From the NCBI RefSeq assembly GCF_019968605.1, contig NZ_CP082966.1, positions 1,599,001 through 1,663,000 of the forward strand: a DNA stretch of 64,000 nucleotides. Reading direction: 5' to 3'. This stretch comes from Polaribacter litorisediminis. Its GTDB lineage: Bacteria; Bacteroidota; Bacteroidia; Flavobacteriales; Flavobacteriaceae. Below are positions 2,075 to 49,791 of this stretch, one piece after another. The notes below the pieces were generated by a model. It was not told where the DNA came from, ran no database searches, and saw only the letters and a list, made by a program, of their open reading frames with translations. Numbering within the stretch: the first letter of the stretch is position 1; each line of letters starts with the position of its first letter. The translations under genes were made by a program, and so were the position numbers.

Positions 2075-2091
2075 AAACTATTATTAAAATC

Positions 2092-2318
2092 CATTGTTGT
2101 CCGATAAAAGATAAAAAGACCGCTTTCGCTGTTAGAATAAAGAACAAAGACTTGAATGTAACTAACTGAAAAACAATATTATTACGATTTTAAATTTTTC
2201 GATACATCATAAATTCTAAAGCGGTTTTAAAAGCAAGGTATACTACTTTAAAAGCTCTTGAAAATCAATACTATCAATACTTTAAAACACTTTAGCTAAT
2301 TTTAATCGGACAACACTA
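2092..2318. mobile_element. MITE copy 1 (about 227 bp)
   Basis: Non-coding element with imperfect terminal inverted repeats: left end CATTGTTGTCCGAT, right end (reverse complement) TAGTGTTGTCCGAT. It is flanked by a perfect 9-bp duplication ATTAAAATC at 2083-2091 and 2319-2327. Near-identical copies occur at 19213-19438 (inverted) and 27384-27610. It has no ORF, so it must be moved by a transposase encoded elsewhere; a 9-bp duplication would suit an IS4-like enzyme, which is inference. Confidence 0.85.
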
Positions 2319-2343
2319 ATTAAAATCTAAAAAACAGTTACTT

Positions 2344-19004: not shown

Positions 19005-19212
19005 ATTTTTAAATCCTTATGAATTGCTAAATTTAAGCATGTTTAGCCATCTTTAAAATTAAATTCAAAGTTTTTTTCTTAATCACAAAGATTATCAACA
19101 AAACAATCAAAATTATAAACAAGTTATTATTTGTTGAAATTTAATAAAACAACTATTCGTTTCGGTTAAGTATAAAATGAACAGGATCTTAGAACATTTA
19201 TTATTTTAATTT

Positions 19213-19438
19213 TAGTGTTGTCCGATTAAAATTAGCTAAAGAGTTTTAAAGTATTGATAGTATTGATTTTCAAGAGCTTTTAAAGTAGTACACCTTGCTT
19301 TTAAAACCGCTTTAGAATTTATGATGCATCGAAAAATTTAAAATCATAATAATATTTTTTTCAGTTAGTTACAGCCAAGTCTTTGTTCTTGATTCTAACA
19401 GCGAAAGCGGTCTTTTTATCTTTTATCAGACAACAATG
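19213..19438. mobile_element. MITE copy 2 (about 226 bp, inverted relative to copies 1 and 3)
   Basis: Starts TAGTGTTGTCCGAT and ends ATCAGACAACAATG, the latter with one substitution in the terminal repeat. Flanks are TTTTAATTT (19204-19212) and ATTTAATTT (19439-19447), a 9-bp duplication with one mismatch. It sits in the divergent promoter region of the two antiporter genes. Its decayed end and flanks suggest the oldest insertion of the three. Confidence 0.82.
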
Positions 19439-19556
19439 ATTTAATTTACTGGTATTATTTAAAGATTGGAACTTTCTATGATTATAAAGAAGAATAATTT
19501 GCGCAACACTGTTTAATTTATATCTTTAGCTTTTAGCTTTACCAAAACAAACTTGA

Positions 19557-22684: not shown

Positions 22685-22725
22685 AACCTAACTTTCTCTT
22701 CATACTTCAATACGCCCGCGTTAAG

Positions 22726-22803
22726 GATTGTAGTGAAAATCCTTTTCATTTGTTTAAATGAAAAGATTGTAGCGAAAAGCCTGACCAAGTTTTTTTACTT
22801 GGT
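22726..22803. repeat. Structured intergenic repeat, possible bidirectional terminator
   Basis: Two related 17-mers (GATTGTAGTGAAAATCC at 22726 and GATTGTAGCGAAAAGCC at 22765) flank a hairpin CTTTTCATTT-gttt-AAATGAAAAG, followed by ACCAAGT...ACTTGGT (22784-22803). This composite is of a kind often seen between flavobacterial genes. It lies exactly between two converging genes. Confidence 0.6.
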
Positions 22804-27160: not shown

Positions 27161-27383
27161 CAGGACATGCCAAGCAGAAACCGCACCAGCCTGCCGGAAG
27201 GCAGGTACAGAGGCATAAGTATTTGGGTCAGCGAGCACATCTTTGTAACGCCCAAAAGAGTAACAAAAGGGTAAATATGTAGACACTCCATATCATTAAA
27301 ACTAAATTTATGGATTTTTGTTGATGAATAAATCTTATAAAACAAAGCCTCTCATTTTTGCAAGGCTGTTTCATATTTAGAAA

Positions 27384-27610
27384 CATTGTTGTCCGATAAA
27401 AGATAAAAAGACTGCTTTCGCTGTTAGAATAAAGAACAAAGACTTGAATGTAACTAACTGAAAAACAATATTATTATGATTTTAAATTTTTCGATACATC
27501 ATAAATTCTAAAGCGGTTTTAAAAGCAAGGTATGCTACTTTAAAGGCTCTTCAAAATTAATATTATCAATACTTTAAAACACTTTAGCTAATTTTAATCG
27601 GACAACACTA
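27384..27610. mobile_element. MITE copy 3 (227 bp)
   Basis: Starts CATTGTTGTCCGAT and ends ATCGGACAACACTA, flanked by a perfect 9-bp duplication ATTTAGAAA (27375-27383 and 27611-27619). Same orientation as copy 1 and very similar to it. It is inserted about 130 bases upstream of katG. Confidence 0.88.
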
Positions 27611-27652
27611 ATTTAGAAATGCTGTGCTATATTATATTATTTTTTTGAATGA

Positions 27653-30379: not shown

Positions 30380-31235
30380 ACCAACGTGTTTGTAATCGAG
30401 TAGGTAAAGGGAGTTTCACCCTAAACCTCTCACAGAACCGTGCTTGAAAGTCTCCCCTCACACGGCTCTTCTTATACAAATCTAAGCGATTTTTACGTTA
30501 TTTATAAATTCATCCTCAAATTAATTGAGTTGATAAATAAATAACTGCGTATAAGCTAAGCCCTTTGCTCCATTTCCATTACAGAAACTTCATCACTACT
30601 GCGGCTTAGTCTGCCTCTGCTTATAACTTCGGTATGCTACCTCTTGGTTGTTCCAATTGAGTATTTCCCTTTTTACTGGAAGCGAATCCTCTAGCGGTAG
30701 CCTTAAACAAGTCTGACATTTATAAGCAGTTTCCCAAGTTCCGTAAATAAGCCTAAATAAAGGTCTTGCCACCTGAATGACGCCAGACTTACAGAAAATA
30801 AATAGGTTACTTCTGTAATTATTATACTCTAATTGAATTCAATAATTTTCACTCAGTATCATACTTCGTAGCTTTTGACTGGAGGTTTGCAACTTCTCGA
30901 CACCTCATCAGCGGTTCATTTTCATTCAACTCCTTTATTCATACCTGCCAACCTCATGGGCTGGATTCTCCTAAACGCTCAGCACCATAACTGTTAATTA
31001 CAGCACCTTTAGGTGGTTTAAAGTCTCGCTTATACAACGACTCTGATAGACCTACCATCATCTTATTTACAGCATTCAGTCAGTTTATTGCCGTGACTGA
31101 TTCTTGGCACACTATGGTTTGTTGCGTGGTTTAAGCACCTAATTTAGCAAATAAAAACCGAATAGAAAATCCGCAAGGATTTTCGTAAGTAGGCTAGAAC
31201 TAGCAATAAATTATATACGGTGTTACCAGCTGGGT
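30380..31235 (-). repeat. Cassette repeat A, split by a group II intron
   Basis: Joining 30380-30394 to 31113-31235 gives one repeat: ACCAACGTGTTTGTA plus TATGGTTTGTTGCGTGGTTT, then AGCAAATAAAAACCG, a small hairpin AAAATCC-gcaa-GGATTTT, and CTAGCAATAAATTATATACG with GTGTTACC. This closely parallels repeat B at 33684-33820. The outer ends are imperfectly palindromic. It lies directly after the stop of the ATPase gene at 31253. Confidence 0.75.
30395..31112 (-). mobile_element. Group II intron without reverse transcriptase ORF (718 bp)
   Basis: Read on the minus strand it starts GTGTGCC (consensus GUGYG) and ends CTCGAT (consensus AY). Domain V is a canonical 34-mer at 30435-30468: stem GAGCCGTG/CACGGTTC with the catalytic AGC, inner stem GAGGG/CTTTC and GNRA loop GAGA. 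Domain VI follows, with an unpaired A at 30401, 7 bases from the 3' end, as branch point. The long domain I-III part is present. Domain IV is a ~90-base stem region with no ORF, so splicing or mobility would depend on a maturase encoded elsewhere. It is inserted inside a cassette repeat. Confidence 0.9.
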
Positions 31236-31252: not shown

Positions 31253-33643
31253 TTAAAGTCTTGTGTCAATTAGCATTAAAGTATCTTGTATTAAATTGTC
31301 TAATTCACTTGCAGTAATAGTATGTGGGTTTATTCCGATTATCGAATAGTTAGGTGCAGGATTTCCGTGATGTGGCATCCAGGAAACACTATTTATCAGA
31401 TTCAAATTATTGATTATATCAGAGCGATTTCCATTATCTCTGAAAATCACACCTGATGTATCTAAAAATGAAATTAATCTACCGAATGTCTGTTGTCCAG
31501 TCATTGTTCGCAATTCTCTATAGAATTTAAAGCGTAAATGAGATTCTAAAACGTTTCTCAACCATCCGAGAACTGTATCTTTTATAGAGTGGTCTGGATT
31601 AGTTCGGAAATTTTCTAACGCTTTGAGATGTTTGAAATAATCATTTTGTACTAATTCCTCAAGGTTGCAAGGTTCTAATTCAGATGAATTGGCTGAGAAG
31701 TTTTGTTTAATTCTCAATGTACTTTTATCTGCAATAGGAATGTCTTTTCCAATGGCGTGCAAAAAATATTCATTATGACTTAGAACAATTACTTGTTTAA
31801 GTTGAGATAAAGCTGATTTAATTATACCAATAGTATATGTTCTTCTATTTGTGTCTAAACTTGACAAAGGATCATCAAATACTAGTATTTTATTTTGATG
31901 ATTTGGGTCTATATCAAGCTTTGATAAGAAAAAAGCTAAAGCAATTGTACTTTTATCTCCTTCACTCAAACATTCTTTTGCGCTAAGAGGTTGATTAGTA
32001 TCAAATGAAATGGGATTGCCATTAATCGTAAGCGTGTAATTTATCTTACTTTGAGTAGCTCTTCCTCGTGGTGCAATATGCTCTACAGTATCAATTCTAA
32101 ACGGTGTTTTGAAAATAGCACCTAAATAATGATTAATTCTGGTTTGATAACTGCTGAAGAATGCGGTTGCTGCTGTATTTTGTTGTTGAATTAATATTGG
32201 ATATGCAGTTGTTAGCGCTCTCAAACGTTGCTTTTCAGCAACTATTTGATTGCAAATTTGAACAATAGCTGGCTCAAACCTTTTCTTAATTCTCTTTAAT
32301 CTATCAACTTCTAATTGAGCATTTTCTATTGTTTGAATTCCGCCTTTAAATGCGGTTATAGCAGTATTGTATAATGTAACACTTTGATTATATGCAGTGA
32401 TATTCGTTGTTAAATCTTGTATTAATGTTTGAAAAGTGGTTAATGAACTTGTATTTATGGCTGTTGTTGGATTTTGTATTTTTTGTTCCACTAATGAAAT
32501 TAGAGTTTGAAACTCTGTCTGTAATTCACTAGCATTTGAAATCAATGAATTTATTGGCGCTTGAACCGTATTCGGTAAATGATTTGCCCAAAATGTAATT
32601 TTACTATTATTAGATGTGCAACCAGTATTTATGCCTTGAATGGTGGCGTCCAAATTAAAATTTTGAAGTGATGTTAGATGTGTTCTTAACCTAACTAAAA
32701 ATGCATTGAATTCTTCTTTAAACTTACTTGTGTAAGCACTAATAATATCCATACTATTATTAATACTTTGTTGGCAGAATGGACAATTTAAATCTGTTTC
32801 GTTTTTAGATTCTTTAGAAGTAATATATTTATAACCAGTTTGAAGCCAATTTTCGGCTGATTGAATGGTATTATCATTTAAATCTTGACAGTGACTTGCA
32901 AATAACTGTTCTAATGTTTGATTTTGAATAGACTGTATGGTTGTTTGTAAATCTGTGAGTAAAGTTGTAAAATTAATATTTGCATTAACAGGCGCAATCG
33001 GTATCGTTAATTGTAAAGTTTGGATTATAGAATTTGCCCTTGCATTTGTTAATTTCAATTCTGCAGCTGTAATCGCTGGGTCAATTCCATTGAAATCTGT
33101 TGATGGTATTGACAAAAAGCTGGTAATTAATTCAGAAGTAATATTGTTGCCAACTTGCTGAATTAATTGTGATTCTAGAATAGTTTGATTCTGTCTTGAA
33201 TTTGCTTTATCTAATTTATTTTGCTCTATTTGATTTTGAATAGCAACACCTTGAGCACCAATAACAAATTGGTGAAGTTGTTTTTTATGTTCTTCGTTAA
33301 AGTCAAATCCAGAGTATATATTTTCATTAACAAAATGAATGTCAAAAATTTCAATATTAGGAAAGGGTCTTGTCCATCCAGAAGCTCCAAAAGTGTGATA
33401 GATGTTTGGTGTTCCAAGCTGTGTTATTTGAGCAGCTTGATTTTGAGTATGAGCTGTAGAAATTCTACTTCTAATTATTGAAGGATTATCCGAAGTAAGC
33501 GACCTAAGTACAGAAGTCAAAGTTGTTTTTCCGCCACCATTATCTCCATAAATTAAAGTAAGTTTTTTGAAATTAACTTGTCCTGTGGCTGTGTAATTAC
33601 GATACTTTCCTATTGATACAAGTTTCTCAATTTTATTAATCAT
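31253..33643 (-). CDS. RloC/PrrC-like AAA_13 ATPase, candidate anticodon nuclease
   Basis: 796 residues. N-terminal Walker A YGDNGGGKTT near residue 33; a long helical region with a zinc-hook-like CPFC near 287; ABC signature LSEGDKS near 555; Walker B ILVFDDPLSSLD near 585 and H-loop VLSHN. This SMC/Rad50-like layout with CPFC is that of RloC; PrrC lacks the hook. The C-terminal region contains WLRNVLESHLRF (R-x3-E) and later SWMPHHG; the Arg-Glu-His order echoes the PrrC/RloC anticodon-nuclease triad, but the spacing to His is longer than in PrrC. So a tRNA-cleaving defence role is likely but unproven. It occupies its own cassette-like unit. Confidence 0.75.
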   Translation of the reverse strand: MINKIEKLVSIGKYRNYTATGQVNFKKLTLIYGDNGGGKTTLTSVLRSLTSDNPSIIRSRISTAHTQNQAAQITQLGTPNIYHTFGASGWTRPFPNIEIFDIHFVNENIYSGFDFNEEHKKQLHQFVIGAQGVAIQNQIEQNKLDKANSRQNQTILESQLIQQVGNNITSELITSFLSIPSTDFNGIDPAITAAELKLTNARANSIIQTLQLTIPIAPVNANINFTTLLTDLQTTIQSIQNQTLEQLFASHCQDLNDNTIQSAENWLQTGYKYITSKESKNETDLNCPFCQQSINNSMDIISAYTSKFKEEFNAFLVRLRTHLTSLQNFNLDATIQGINTGCTSNNSKITFWANHLPNTVQAPINSLISNASELQTEFQTLISLVEQKIQNPTTAINTSSLTTFQTLIQDLTTNITAYNQSVTLYNTAITAFKGGIQTIENAQLEVDRLKRIKKRFEPAIVQICNQIVAEKQRLRALTTAYPILIQQQNTAATAFFSSYQTRINHYLGAIFKTPFRIDTVEHIAPRGRATQSKINYTLTINGNPISFDTNQPLSAKECLSEGDKSTIALAFFLSKLDIDPNHQNKILVFDDPLSSLDTNRRTYTIGIIKSALSQLKQVIVLSHNEYFLHAIGKDIPIADKSTLRIKQNFSANSSELEPCNLEELVQNDYFKHLKALENFRTNPDHSIKDTVLGWLRNVLESHLRFKFYRELRTMTGQQTFGRLISFLDTSGVIFRDNGNRSDIINNLNLINSVSWMPHHGNPAPNYSIIGINPHTITASELDNLIQDTLMLIDTRL

Positions 33644-49059: not shown

Positions 49060-49093
49060 AAATAAAAATTTAACTACTAGTAATAGATATATA

Positions 49094-49285
49094 TTATAAT
49101 ACTCTAACGTTTACTGCGTTTAATCCTTTTTTTCCATCTTGTAAGTCAAATTCAACTTCATCGTTTTCACGAATTTCGTCAATTAATCCTGACACATGCA
49201 CAAAATGTTCTTTGTTTGATCCTTCTTCAGTGATAAATCCAAATCCTTTAGATTCATTGAAAAATTTTACGGTACCTTTATTCAT
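49094..49285 (-). CDS. Cold-shock domain protein (copy 1)
   Basis: 63-residue single CSD protein, an RNA chaperone. RNP1 is KGFGFITEEG and RNP2 is HFVHVSGL. Differs from the protein at 49487-49678 only by Lys instead of Arg in QDGKKGLN. It has its own upstream leader and terminator; the spacing shows a tandem duplication of gene plus terminator (unit 393 bp). Confidence 0.95.
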   Translation of the reverse strand: MNKGTVKFFNESKGFGFITEEGSNKEHFVHVSGLIDEIRENDEVEFDLQDGKKGLNAVNVRVL

Positions 49286-49425
49286 TATAAAAAATTATGT
49301 TGTTATCAATTTAATTATTGACAACATTTTGAATGGCAAAGATAGGCACAATAACTGGTGAAATAGCCAAAAGATATGTTTTATTTCAGAAATTTGACTT
49401 TTACTTAATCGAAACAAAAAAGCAT

Positions 49426-49455: not shown

Positions 49456-49486
49456 AGATAAAAAATTAACTAGTAATAGATATATA

Positions 49487-49678
49487 TTATAATACTCTTA
49501 CGTTTACTGCGTTTAATCCTTTTCTTCCATCTTGTAAGTCGAATTCAACTTCATCGTTTTCACGAATTTCATCAATTAATCCTGACACATGTACAAAATG
49601 TTCTTTGTTTGATCCTTCTTCAGTGATAAATCCAAATCCTTTAGATTCATTGAAAAATTTTACGGTACCTTTATTCAT
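49487..49678 (-). CDS. Cold-shock domain protein (copy 2)
   Basis: 63 residues, same motifs as copy 1; one residue differs (Arg in QDGRKGLN). The nucleotide sequences are also nearly identical through the coding region, while the leaders have diverged more, so the duplication is recent or maintained by conversion. Confidence 0.95.
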   Translation of the reverse strand: MNKGTVKFFNESKGFGFITEEGSNKEHFVHVSGLIDEIRENDEVEFDLQDGRKGLNAVNVRVL

Positions 49679-49791
49679 TATAAAAATTATTGTGTTGTTA
49701 AGCTAATTACTAACAACGTTTATATTAGGTACAAATATAACGATAAATAAATTTATTTACATAAAATTAAAAAAATTAATTTAAATTTTTA

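What the first reader, a model, noticed from the sequence alone, without database searches (positions are those of the whole stretch)
30395..31112. ORF-less group II intron inserted in a cassette repeat
Ends GTGTG...AT, a 34-nt domain V with GNRA loop and a branch-point A 7 nt from the 3' end are all seen, yet domain IV has no reverse transcriptase. Removing the intron regenerates a continuous repeat (ACCAACGTGTTTGTA joined to TATGGTTTGTTGCGTGG) that parallels repeat B. Group IIC-attC introns are known to target attC hairpins; an intron lacking its own protein in a non-classical attC-like repeat of Bacteroidota would extend that picture. The insertion supports the repeat being a folded or recombinogenic site.
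Basis: partly seen in the sequence, partly recalled or inferred. Interest (0 to 1): 0.75.

Follow-up and report, generated by a model that had tools for sequence, protein, structure and literature searches.

The report
Group II intron in cassette repeats
A protein-less self-splicing type of intron sits inside a hairpin DNA repeat that flanks gene cassettes in a Flavobacteria-type genome, and it belongs to a lineage that has inserted many times at the same spot of such repeats in related bacteria.

Summary
Confirmed and widened. Window 30395-31112 (minus strand) is a 718-nt group II intron (RF00029 67.4 bits, RF01999 94.1 bits) without a reverse transcriptase (RT) trace. It interrupts one copy of a 130-nt attC-like repeat that has 44 model matches in the genome. 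Two further intron copies also lie in repeats. In the family search, 21 of 44 related intron 3' ends are followed by the repeat core [AC]CGTT[AG], against 5 of 1716 control windows. RT-bearing relatives in Arenibacter, Maribellus, Cryomorpha and MAGs use the same site (7 of 9 loci). It is not IIC-attC: domain V carries AGC, relatives' RTs are not class C, and it enters the gene-sense strand at the L' box. ORF-less copies keep their RNA fold by compensatory changes, yet the complete genome has no cognate RT. The repeats resemble integron attC sites: bottom-strand hairpin, same-strand gene-repeat arrays, nearby tyrosine recombinases; but the one recombinase aligned residue by residue lacks the IntI-specific insertion. 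Splicing and mobility are untested. New variant of a known kind.

The parts
30395..31112 (-). ORF-less group II intron, 718 nt (5' end at 31112, 3' end at 30395)
   Evidence: no RT trace
30395..30470 (-). intron domains V and VI; AGC triad, branch-point A 7 nt from the 3' end
   Evidence: RF00029, 67.4 bits
30943..31059 (-). intron domain I-IV core (RF01999, D1D4-2)
   Evidence: 94.1 bits; structure kept by covariation in 11 ORF-less copies
30858..30863 (-). candidate EBS1 (TATGAT, intron positions 250-255), pairs 5 of 6 with IBS1
   Evidence: position chosen after the fact; supported in RT-bearing relatives only
31113..31118 (-). IBS1, last 6 nt of the 5' exon (ACCATA), inside the L' box of the repeat
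31113..31227 (-). attC-like repeat, 5' part up to the insertion point (R'' box GGTAAC at 31222-31227)
   Evidence: model R1 positions 2-114 at 31113-31225
30380..30394 (-). attC-like repeat, 3' part after the insertion point (end of L' box, spacer, R' box GTTGGT)
   Evidence: alignments
31253..33643 (-). cassette gene followed by the interrupted repeat (AAA_13 ATPase, 796 aa)
   Evidence: R1 96.7 bits
43234..43361 (-). uninterrupted attC-like repeat
   Evidence: R1 63.1 bits

Best explanation
The segment is a member of a non-IIC lineage of group II introns that specialises in the attC-like repeats of Bacteroidota gene-cassette arrays. Shown: intron boundaries and core structure; insertion at one position of the repeat (about model position 114, in the L' box, on the gene-sense strand); the same site used by relatives with and without an RT; structure-preserving evolution of ORF-less copies; no cognate RT in this complete genome. 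Inferred: the intron is co-transcribed with the cassette gene, splices out with the help of an RT/maturase from elsewhere (a visiting RT-bearing relative, or less likely the class C RT of this genome), and reverse-splices into the gene-sense strand of another repeat by pairing EBS1 (perhaps also EBS2) with the conserved 3' arm of the repeat, which is exposed as single strand during replication or recombination. Because the site lies between cassettes, insertion costs the host no gene.
For: Rfam matches. Three copies in G000, all touching repeats. In the family search 37 of 397 genomes match; 21 of 44 intron 3' ends have the repeat core at +4..+15 versus 5 of 1716 control windows. Partial repeat-model matches stop at the intron 5' end at model position 114 or 115 in window, L074, L076, L085 and L093, and 5 nt short of it in L081, i.e. 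6 of 18 known 5' ends; the other exons were recognised by eye only. RT-bearing relatives in 7 of 9 genome-contig loci show repeat exons on at least one side, and their RTs form one clade (100/99, 6 rows). EBS1-IBS1: 41 of 48 cognate pairs in 8 RT-bearing introns, permuted mean 34.5, reached by 67 of 20000 permutations. ORF-less fold: 18 of 38 pairs with double changes, 0 of 500 shuffles; among the three G000 copies 10 of 38 pairs vary and all 10 stay paired.
Against: EBS1 pairing is no better than permuted in 10 ORF-less introns (33 of 60, permuted mean 36.0) and the position was chosen after the fact; EBS2 is not significant (33 of 48, 7297 of 20000). The repeat flanks of 12 of 18 known 5' ends were not detected by the repeat model at E up to 0.1. 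The third G000 copy lacks the first 12 nt and follows a nearly complete repeat, so it is truncated or rearranged. 23 of 44 intron ends in the family set are not in the motif, most of them from a sister lineage. No transcript, splicing or mobility data exist here.
Confidence: 0.72

Rival explanations
1. It is a IIC-attC intron (or close kin) that recognises the folded repeat as a hairpin.
For: Insertion in an attC-like hairpin repeat. IIC-type introns do occur in this genome at the R end of such repeats: RF02001, class C RT, CGC triad, 5' end abutting a repeat at L034 10689.
Against: The window intron has AGC in domain V and matches RF01999. The RT of its relatives scores 165 bits against the best PDB entry versus 304 bits for the class C RT and is in a separate clade (100/100). 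It lies in the gene-sense strand at the L' box, while IIC-attC introns use the bottom strand at TTGT/T in the R box (PMC7923331, section 3).
Confidence: 0.07
2. The ORF-less copies are dead relics: they no longer splice or move, and were copied or carried around with cassettes by repeat recombination or gene conversion.
For: No cognate RT in G000 (best 31% identity, class C) and none at 46% identity or more in 7 of the 8 genomes that hold the 13 two-ended ORF-less introns. The third G000 copy is 5'-altered. EBS1 pairing is weak in ORF-less copies.
Against: Their fold is kept by double changes (18 of 38 pairs; 4 of 10 variable pairs among the G000 copies by double change and none broken). D5-D6 scores stay high (67.4 bits in all three G000 copies). 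The copies lie in different repeats with different flanks.
Confidence: 0.2
3. The 718 bp belong to the repeat and are not an insertion.
For: None found.
Against: 44 repeat matches, 3 intron matches; aligned repeats without it are contiguous across the site.
Confidence: 0.01

Closest known systems
Group IIC-attC introns of integrons (as described in PMC7923331)
   Same: Group II introns specialised on an attC-type repeat; En-less RT in relatives; insertion between gene cassettes.
   Different: AGC not CGC triad; RF01999 not RF02001; relatives' RT not class C; gene-sense strand instead of bottom strand; L' box instead of R box; EBS1 candidate of 6 nt; many copies without RT.
Group IIB introns in integrons of halophiles (UHB.I2, H.ha.F1, H.ha.F2; PMC7923331, sections 3 and 7 and part 1 of section 10 read)
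   Same: Non-IIC introns with AGC triad next to attC-type sites; UHB.I2 lies in the orientation of the cassettes.
   Different: UHB.I2 sits just downstream of an attC and its homologues show poorly conserved exons; here the insertion is inside the repeat at a constant position in many genomes.
Bacterial ORF-less group II introns, e.g. C.te.I1 (PMC4424553, passages)
   Same: Intron core without an encoded protein; in C.te.I1 also no related protein in the genome.
   Different: A multi-genome, multi-copy ORF-less set tied to one repeat; the review calls bacterial ORF-less introns rare and names a single independent case in 225 genomes.
Integron attC sites and IntI integrases
   Same: R and L box-like arms, bottom strand folds better, gene followed by repeat in same-strand arrays, tyrosine recombinase near the array head.
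   Different: 130-nt repeat with GTATAT L box; recombinases fall below the IntI cut-off and the one aligned lacks the IntI-specific insertion; no recombination shown.

Membership tests
group II intron | Domain V-VI match, GUGYG start, AY end, bulged A 7-8 nt from the 3' end | tested here: met
   RF00029 67.4 bits; GTGTG start, GAT end, A at -7
group II intron | Domain I-IV core structure | tested here: met
   RF01999 94.1 bits; 89.9% of cells paired, 18 pairs with double change in 11 ORF-less copies, 0 of 500 shuffles
group II intron | Splicing and retromobility | not testable with these tools
   no RNA data or assay
group IIC / IIC-attC intron | CGC catalytic triad in domain V | tested here: not met
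   AAGAGCC.. = AGC in the window copy; CGC seen in the L034 intron
group IIC / IIC-attC intron | class C RT | tested here: not met
   tested on RT-bearing relatives: 165 bits best PDB hit versus 304 for the class C RT; separate clade 100/100
group IIC / IIC-attC intron | insertion in the attC bottom strand at TTGT/T of the R box | tested here: not met
   gene-sense strand, TA/TA in the L' box
integron attC site | R and L box inverted arms with a bottom strand that folds | tested here: met
   15 repeats, 29 pairs, 89.5% paired, 10 pairs with double change, 0 of 500 shuffles; z -2.1 and -2.7 on the bottom strand versus -1.0 and -1.0 (two repeats). RNAalifold on the gene-sense alignment found no pairs
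integron attC site | RYYYAAC ... GTTRRRY consensus ends | tested here: inconclusive
   YAAC/GTTR core clear, the outer bases match only in part of the copies
integron attC site | same-strand arrays of gene plus repeat | tested here: met
   G014 arrays at 2215117-2260932 and 2723620-2791656, matches on the minus strand; gene-repeat order in L175
integron attC site | recombination by the cognate integrase | not testable with these tools
   needs an assay
integron integrase (IntI) | IntI-specific insertion near patch III | tested here: not met
   L178 recombinase aligns to VchIntIA (2a3v) in two pieces, 9-188 and 248-310; TIGR02249 in two stretches and below cut-off in 6 of 6 recombinases. NF040815 (XerA/integron integrase) is passed by 2 of these 6

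The most novel reading that the evidence does not exclude
Bacteroidota carry a large, so far unrecognised integron-type cassette system with its own long attC-like hairpins and a tyrosine recombinase lacking the IntI-specific insertion, and two unrelated group II intron lineages have independently specialised on it: a IIC type at the R box of the bottom strand and a non-IIC, often RT-less type at the L' box of the gene-sense strand, the latter kept alive as a trans-mobilised parasite of the cassettes.
Probability: 0.45. Interest if true: 0.85.

Novelty: new variant of a known kind. Interest (0 to 1): 0.7.

Why it matters
The only group II introns said in the sources seen here to be associated with integrons before 2021 were IIC (PMC7923331). 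A second, non-IIC lineage that picks a fixed place inside attC-like repeats on the other strand would show that cassette recombination sites are a general safe haven for retroelements. ORF-less copies that keep their fold in a complete genome without a cognate RT make a direct test of trans-mobilisation possible. The insertions also mark the repeats as old, abundant sites, and point to cassette arrays in Bacteroidota whose recombinases fail the IntI criterion that IntegronFinder uses (PMC9668308, passages), so such arrays may have been overlooked.

Tried and rejected
IIC-attC reading: rejected on triad, Rfam family, RT and strand. First EBS1 guess in the CAUGA loop of domain I: dropped because that loop is conserved regardless of the exon. 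Single-column covariation of exon and intron positions: only +1 stood out against permutation (0 of 300), not controlled for relatedness, so not used. EBS2: pairing plausible in several introns, not significant. RNAalifold on 17 repeats, gene-sense strand: no consensus pair, so the repeat model R1 is sequence-only. A search for RT-bearing relatives by peptide pattern gave only 9 loci. In the RT tree the L145 row is probably another, class-C-like ORF of that locus and says nothing on L145's intron; L149, L094, L095 and L096 gave no usable ORF. Rows dropped: repeats L029, L030 and L032 before the model, L017 and L020 before the pair count; G395b and G050c; G053 rows; G000c, G050a, G050c, G013 and G370 from the 5' exon tests because their 5' ends are altered, chimeric or missing; the two 3' ends in L034 and L038. 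Ten paper searches found no paper on group II introns in Bacteroidota attC-like repeats or on such arrays; the library holds open-licence papers only, and several searches were seen as capped listings.

Full report
What was checked. The 718-nt segment 30395-31112 on the minus strand has group II intron ends (GTGTG at 31112, CTACTCGAT at 30395), a 34-nt domain V with a GAGA loop and an A 7 nt from the 3' end. Rfam gives RF00029 (67.4 bits, 30395-30470) and RF01999 D1D4-2 (94.1 bits, 30943-31059). No RT trace is found in it.

The repeat. The genome (one contig, 4339639 bases) holds 44 matches at E up to 0.001 to a model of the interrupted repeat, built from 17 copies (only 150 of 3787 first-look candidates were scored). 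The repeat is about 130 nt, gene-sense GCCAAC-ACC-GTATAT ... ATATAC-AAACAC-GTTGGC, i.e. R and L box-like arms with unequal spacers. On the bottom strand 15 copies form 29 pairs in 89.5% of cells, with 10 pairs changed on both sides; 0 of 500 shuffles reach these values, while the number of further pair types was reached by 85 of 500. For two repeats the bottom strand folds at z -2.1 and -2.7 and the gene-sense strand at -1.0 and -1.0. RNAalifold on the gene-sense alignment of 17 copies gave no pair, which counts against, though the alignment and strand differ.

Arrays and recombinase. In 12 genomes that I chose (not at random), a relative of a tyrosine recombinase of this genome (L037:3686-4798) is found in 11 at E up to 1e-40, and the repeat model in the same 11; G023 has neither. 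G014 has two dense arrays whose listed matches are on the minus strand, at 2215117-2260932 and 2723620-2791656, with a recombinase at 2793676-2794740 on the same strand; genes and repeats alternate in L175. A repeat lies within about 2.5 kb of a recombinase in G000, G014, G131, G220, G346 and G395 (in G395 on the opposite strand), i.e. 6 of 12 recombinase-bearing genomes counting G000; for the others no such neighbour is in the listed rows, and the list was cut. The nearness was not tested against chance. TIGR02249 (integron integrase) matches 6 of 6 recombinases in two stretches and below its cut-off; NF040815 (XerA/integron integrase) is passed by 2 of 6. One of them aligned to VchIntIA (2a3v) skips residues 189-247, where the IntI-specific insertion lies (location of that insertion recalled and consistent with PMC9668308, passages). 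Integrons as such are known in Bacteroidota (PMC2426708 and PMC8618304, passages).

The intron copies. Three matches exist in the genome: the window copy, one at 2028108-2028826 (93%) and one at 167043-167748 (93%). The first two have full ends at the same place of two different repeats. The third lacks the first 12 nt of the intron and follows a nearly complete repeat (model 2-126), with a repeat 3' exon. Two more D5-D6 matches are of other kinds: a IIC-type intron at 3743124 and a 534-nt piece at 1678552 that joins the first 104 nt of the IIC type to an AGC-type end.

Other genomes. 37 of 397 genomes of the family match the intron DNA (two candidates scored per genome, so a lower bound). I took 40 stretches. 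Of 44 intron 3' ends, 21 are followed by [AC]CGTT[AG] within +4 to +15, against 5 of 1716 control windows downstream. The repeat model stops exactly at the intron 5' end, at model position 114 or 115, in window, L074, L076, L085 and L093, and 5 nt short in L081. These are 6 of 18 known 5' ends; the remaining 5' exons were judged by eye (CGCnAC..TCATA) or are not repeat-like (L072, L073). In the genome-contig scan, 9 loci encode an RT like that of G346. Repeat exons are seen on at least one side in 7 (Arenibacter amylolyticus, Maribellus sediminis, a Cloacimonadota MAG, a Flammeovirgaceae MAG, a Prolixibacteraceae MAG, Cryomorpha ignava, a Cyclobacteriaceae MAG) and not in 2 (Mangrovibacterium marinum, a Chitinophagales MAG). 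With the strict 3' motif the count is 3 of 6 3' ends, control 1 of 204. The repeat-site RTs that could be placed form one clade, 6 rows, support 100/99.

Class. Domain V has AGC; the IIC-type intron of the same genome has CGC. The window type matches RF01999, the IIC type RF02001. The relatives' RT reaches 165 bits with the best PDB entry, the genome's class C RT 304 bits. So the window intron is not IIC; its exact class was not assigned. The IIC-type introns of these genomes seem to use the R box: 2 of 6 5' ends abut a repeat match on the other strand and 4 of 6 exons end in TTGT.

Target recognition. A 6-nt segment at intron positions 250-255 pairs with the last six bases of the 5' exon: 6 of 6 in Arenibacter, Maribellus and Prolixibacteraceae, whose exons differ. 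Over 8 RT-bearing introns 41 of 48 cognate pairs form, permuted mean 34.5, 67 of 20000 permutations as high; the position was chosen after scanning. In 10 ORF-less introns it is 33 of 60, below the permuted mean of 36.0. An EBS2 candidate is not significant. So recognition by EBS1 is likely for the RT-bearing members and open for the rest.

ORF-less but not decayed. In 11 ORF-less introns (of 13 with both ends) the Rfam core structure is paired in 89.9% of cells, with 18 of 38 pairs changed on both sides, 0 of 500 shuffles. Among the three G000 copies 10 of 38 pairs vary, all stay paired, 4 by double change. G000 has four RT-domain matches: three of class C kind and one YSDD RT of another kind; the best match to the lineage's RT is 31%. 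RTs of 46% identity or more occur in 11 of 37 genomes searched, but only in G050 among the 8 genomes that hold the 13 two-ended ORF-less introns. Seven of these 8 are drafts; G000 is complete.

Mechanism. Most likely the intron is a retroelement that lives in cassette repeats, splices from read-through transcripts of the upstream cassette gene, and reverse-splices into the gene-sense strand at the L' box with an RT supplied in trans. The site, fold and lineage are shown; splicing, mobility, the source of RT and any role of single-stranded hairpins are inferred. The relic reading is the main rival.

Literature. PMC7923331 (abstract, sections 3 and 7, part 1 of section 10) describes IIC-attC introns and IIB introns in halophile integrons. 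PMC4424553 (passages) calls bacterial ORF-less introns rare. PMC8352920 (passages) models attC of 11 taxa, none of them Bacteroidota. PMC8138268 (passages) says the IntI insertion is not fully conserved in its subgroup but essential. PMC8637638 and PMC8919778 (passages) gave nothing on attC-like targets. The ten searches listed under Tried and rejected found no report of this case.

Noticed in passing
G000 2983686-2984798 (L037:3686-4798) and G014 C1 2723620-2794740: Tyrosine recombinases of IntI/XerA kind without the IntI-specific insertion beside same-strand arrays of genes and attC-like repeats; G014 has two such arrays of about 46 and 68 kb.
   Followed up: partly
L034:8124-8203 and 10689, L037:13301-14581: IIC-type introns with class C RT in the same genome; one 5' end abuts the R end of a repeat on the opposite strand. 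One RT copy has an in-frame TGA.
   Followed up: partly
L086:280-2251 (G144 C25): Two introns in tandem: an RT-bearing one ends at 1627 and GTGTG of a second follows at once, ending at 2251 in a repeat 3' exon.
   Followed up: no
L072 (G050 C19, minus strand 3' ends at 77, 685, 2400, 3485): Four domain V-VI ends within 3.5 kb, two of them in repeat motifs.
   Followed up: no
L038 (G000 1678552, minus strand), L073:2095-2813: Intron pieces that join the 5' end of the IIC type to the 3' part of the AGC type, as if chimeric.
   Followed up: no
window 2082-2321, 19197-19441, 27374-27613: A dispersed repeat of about 240 bp in three copies, 92-95% alike, one inverted.
   Followed up: no
window 49076-49300 and 49469-49693: Two direct copies of a 225-bp segment, 96% identical, 393 bp apart.
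   Followed up: no
window 22709-22790: Flavo-1 RNA (RF01705, 65.6 bits).
   Followed up: no
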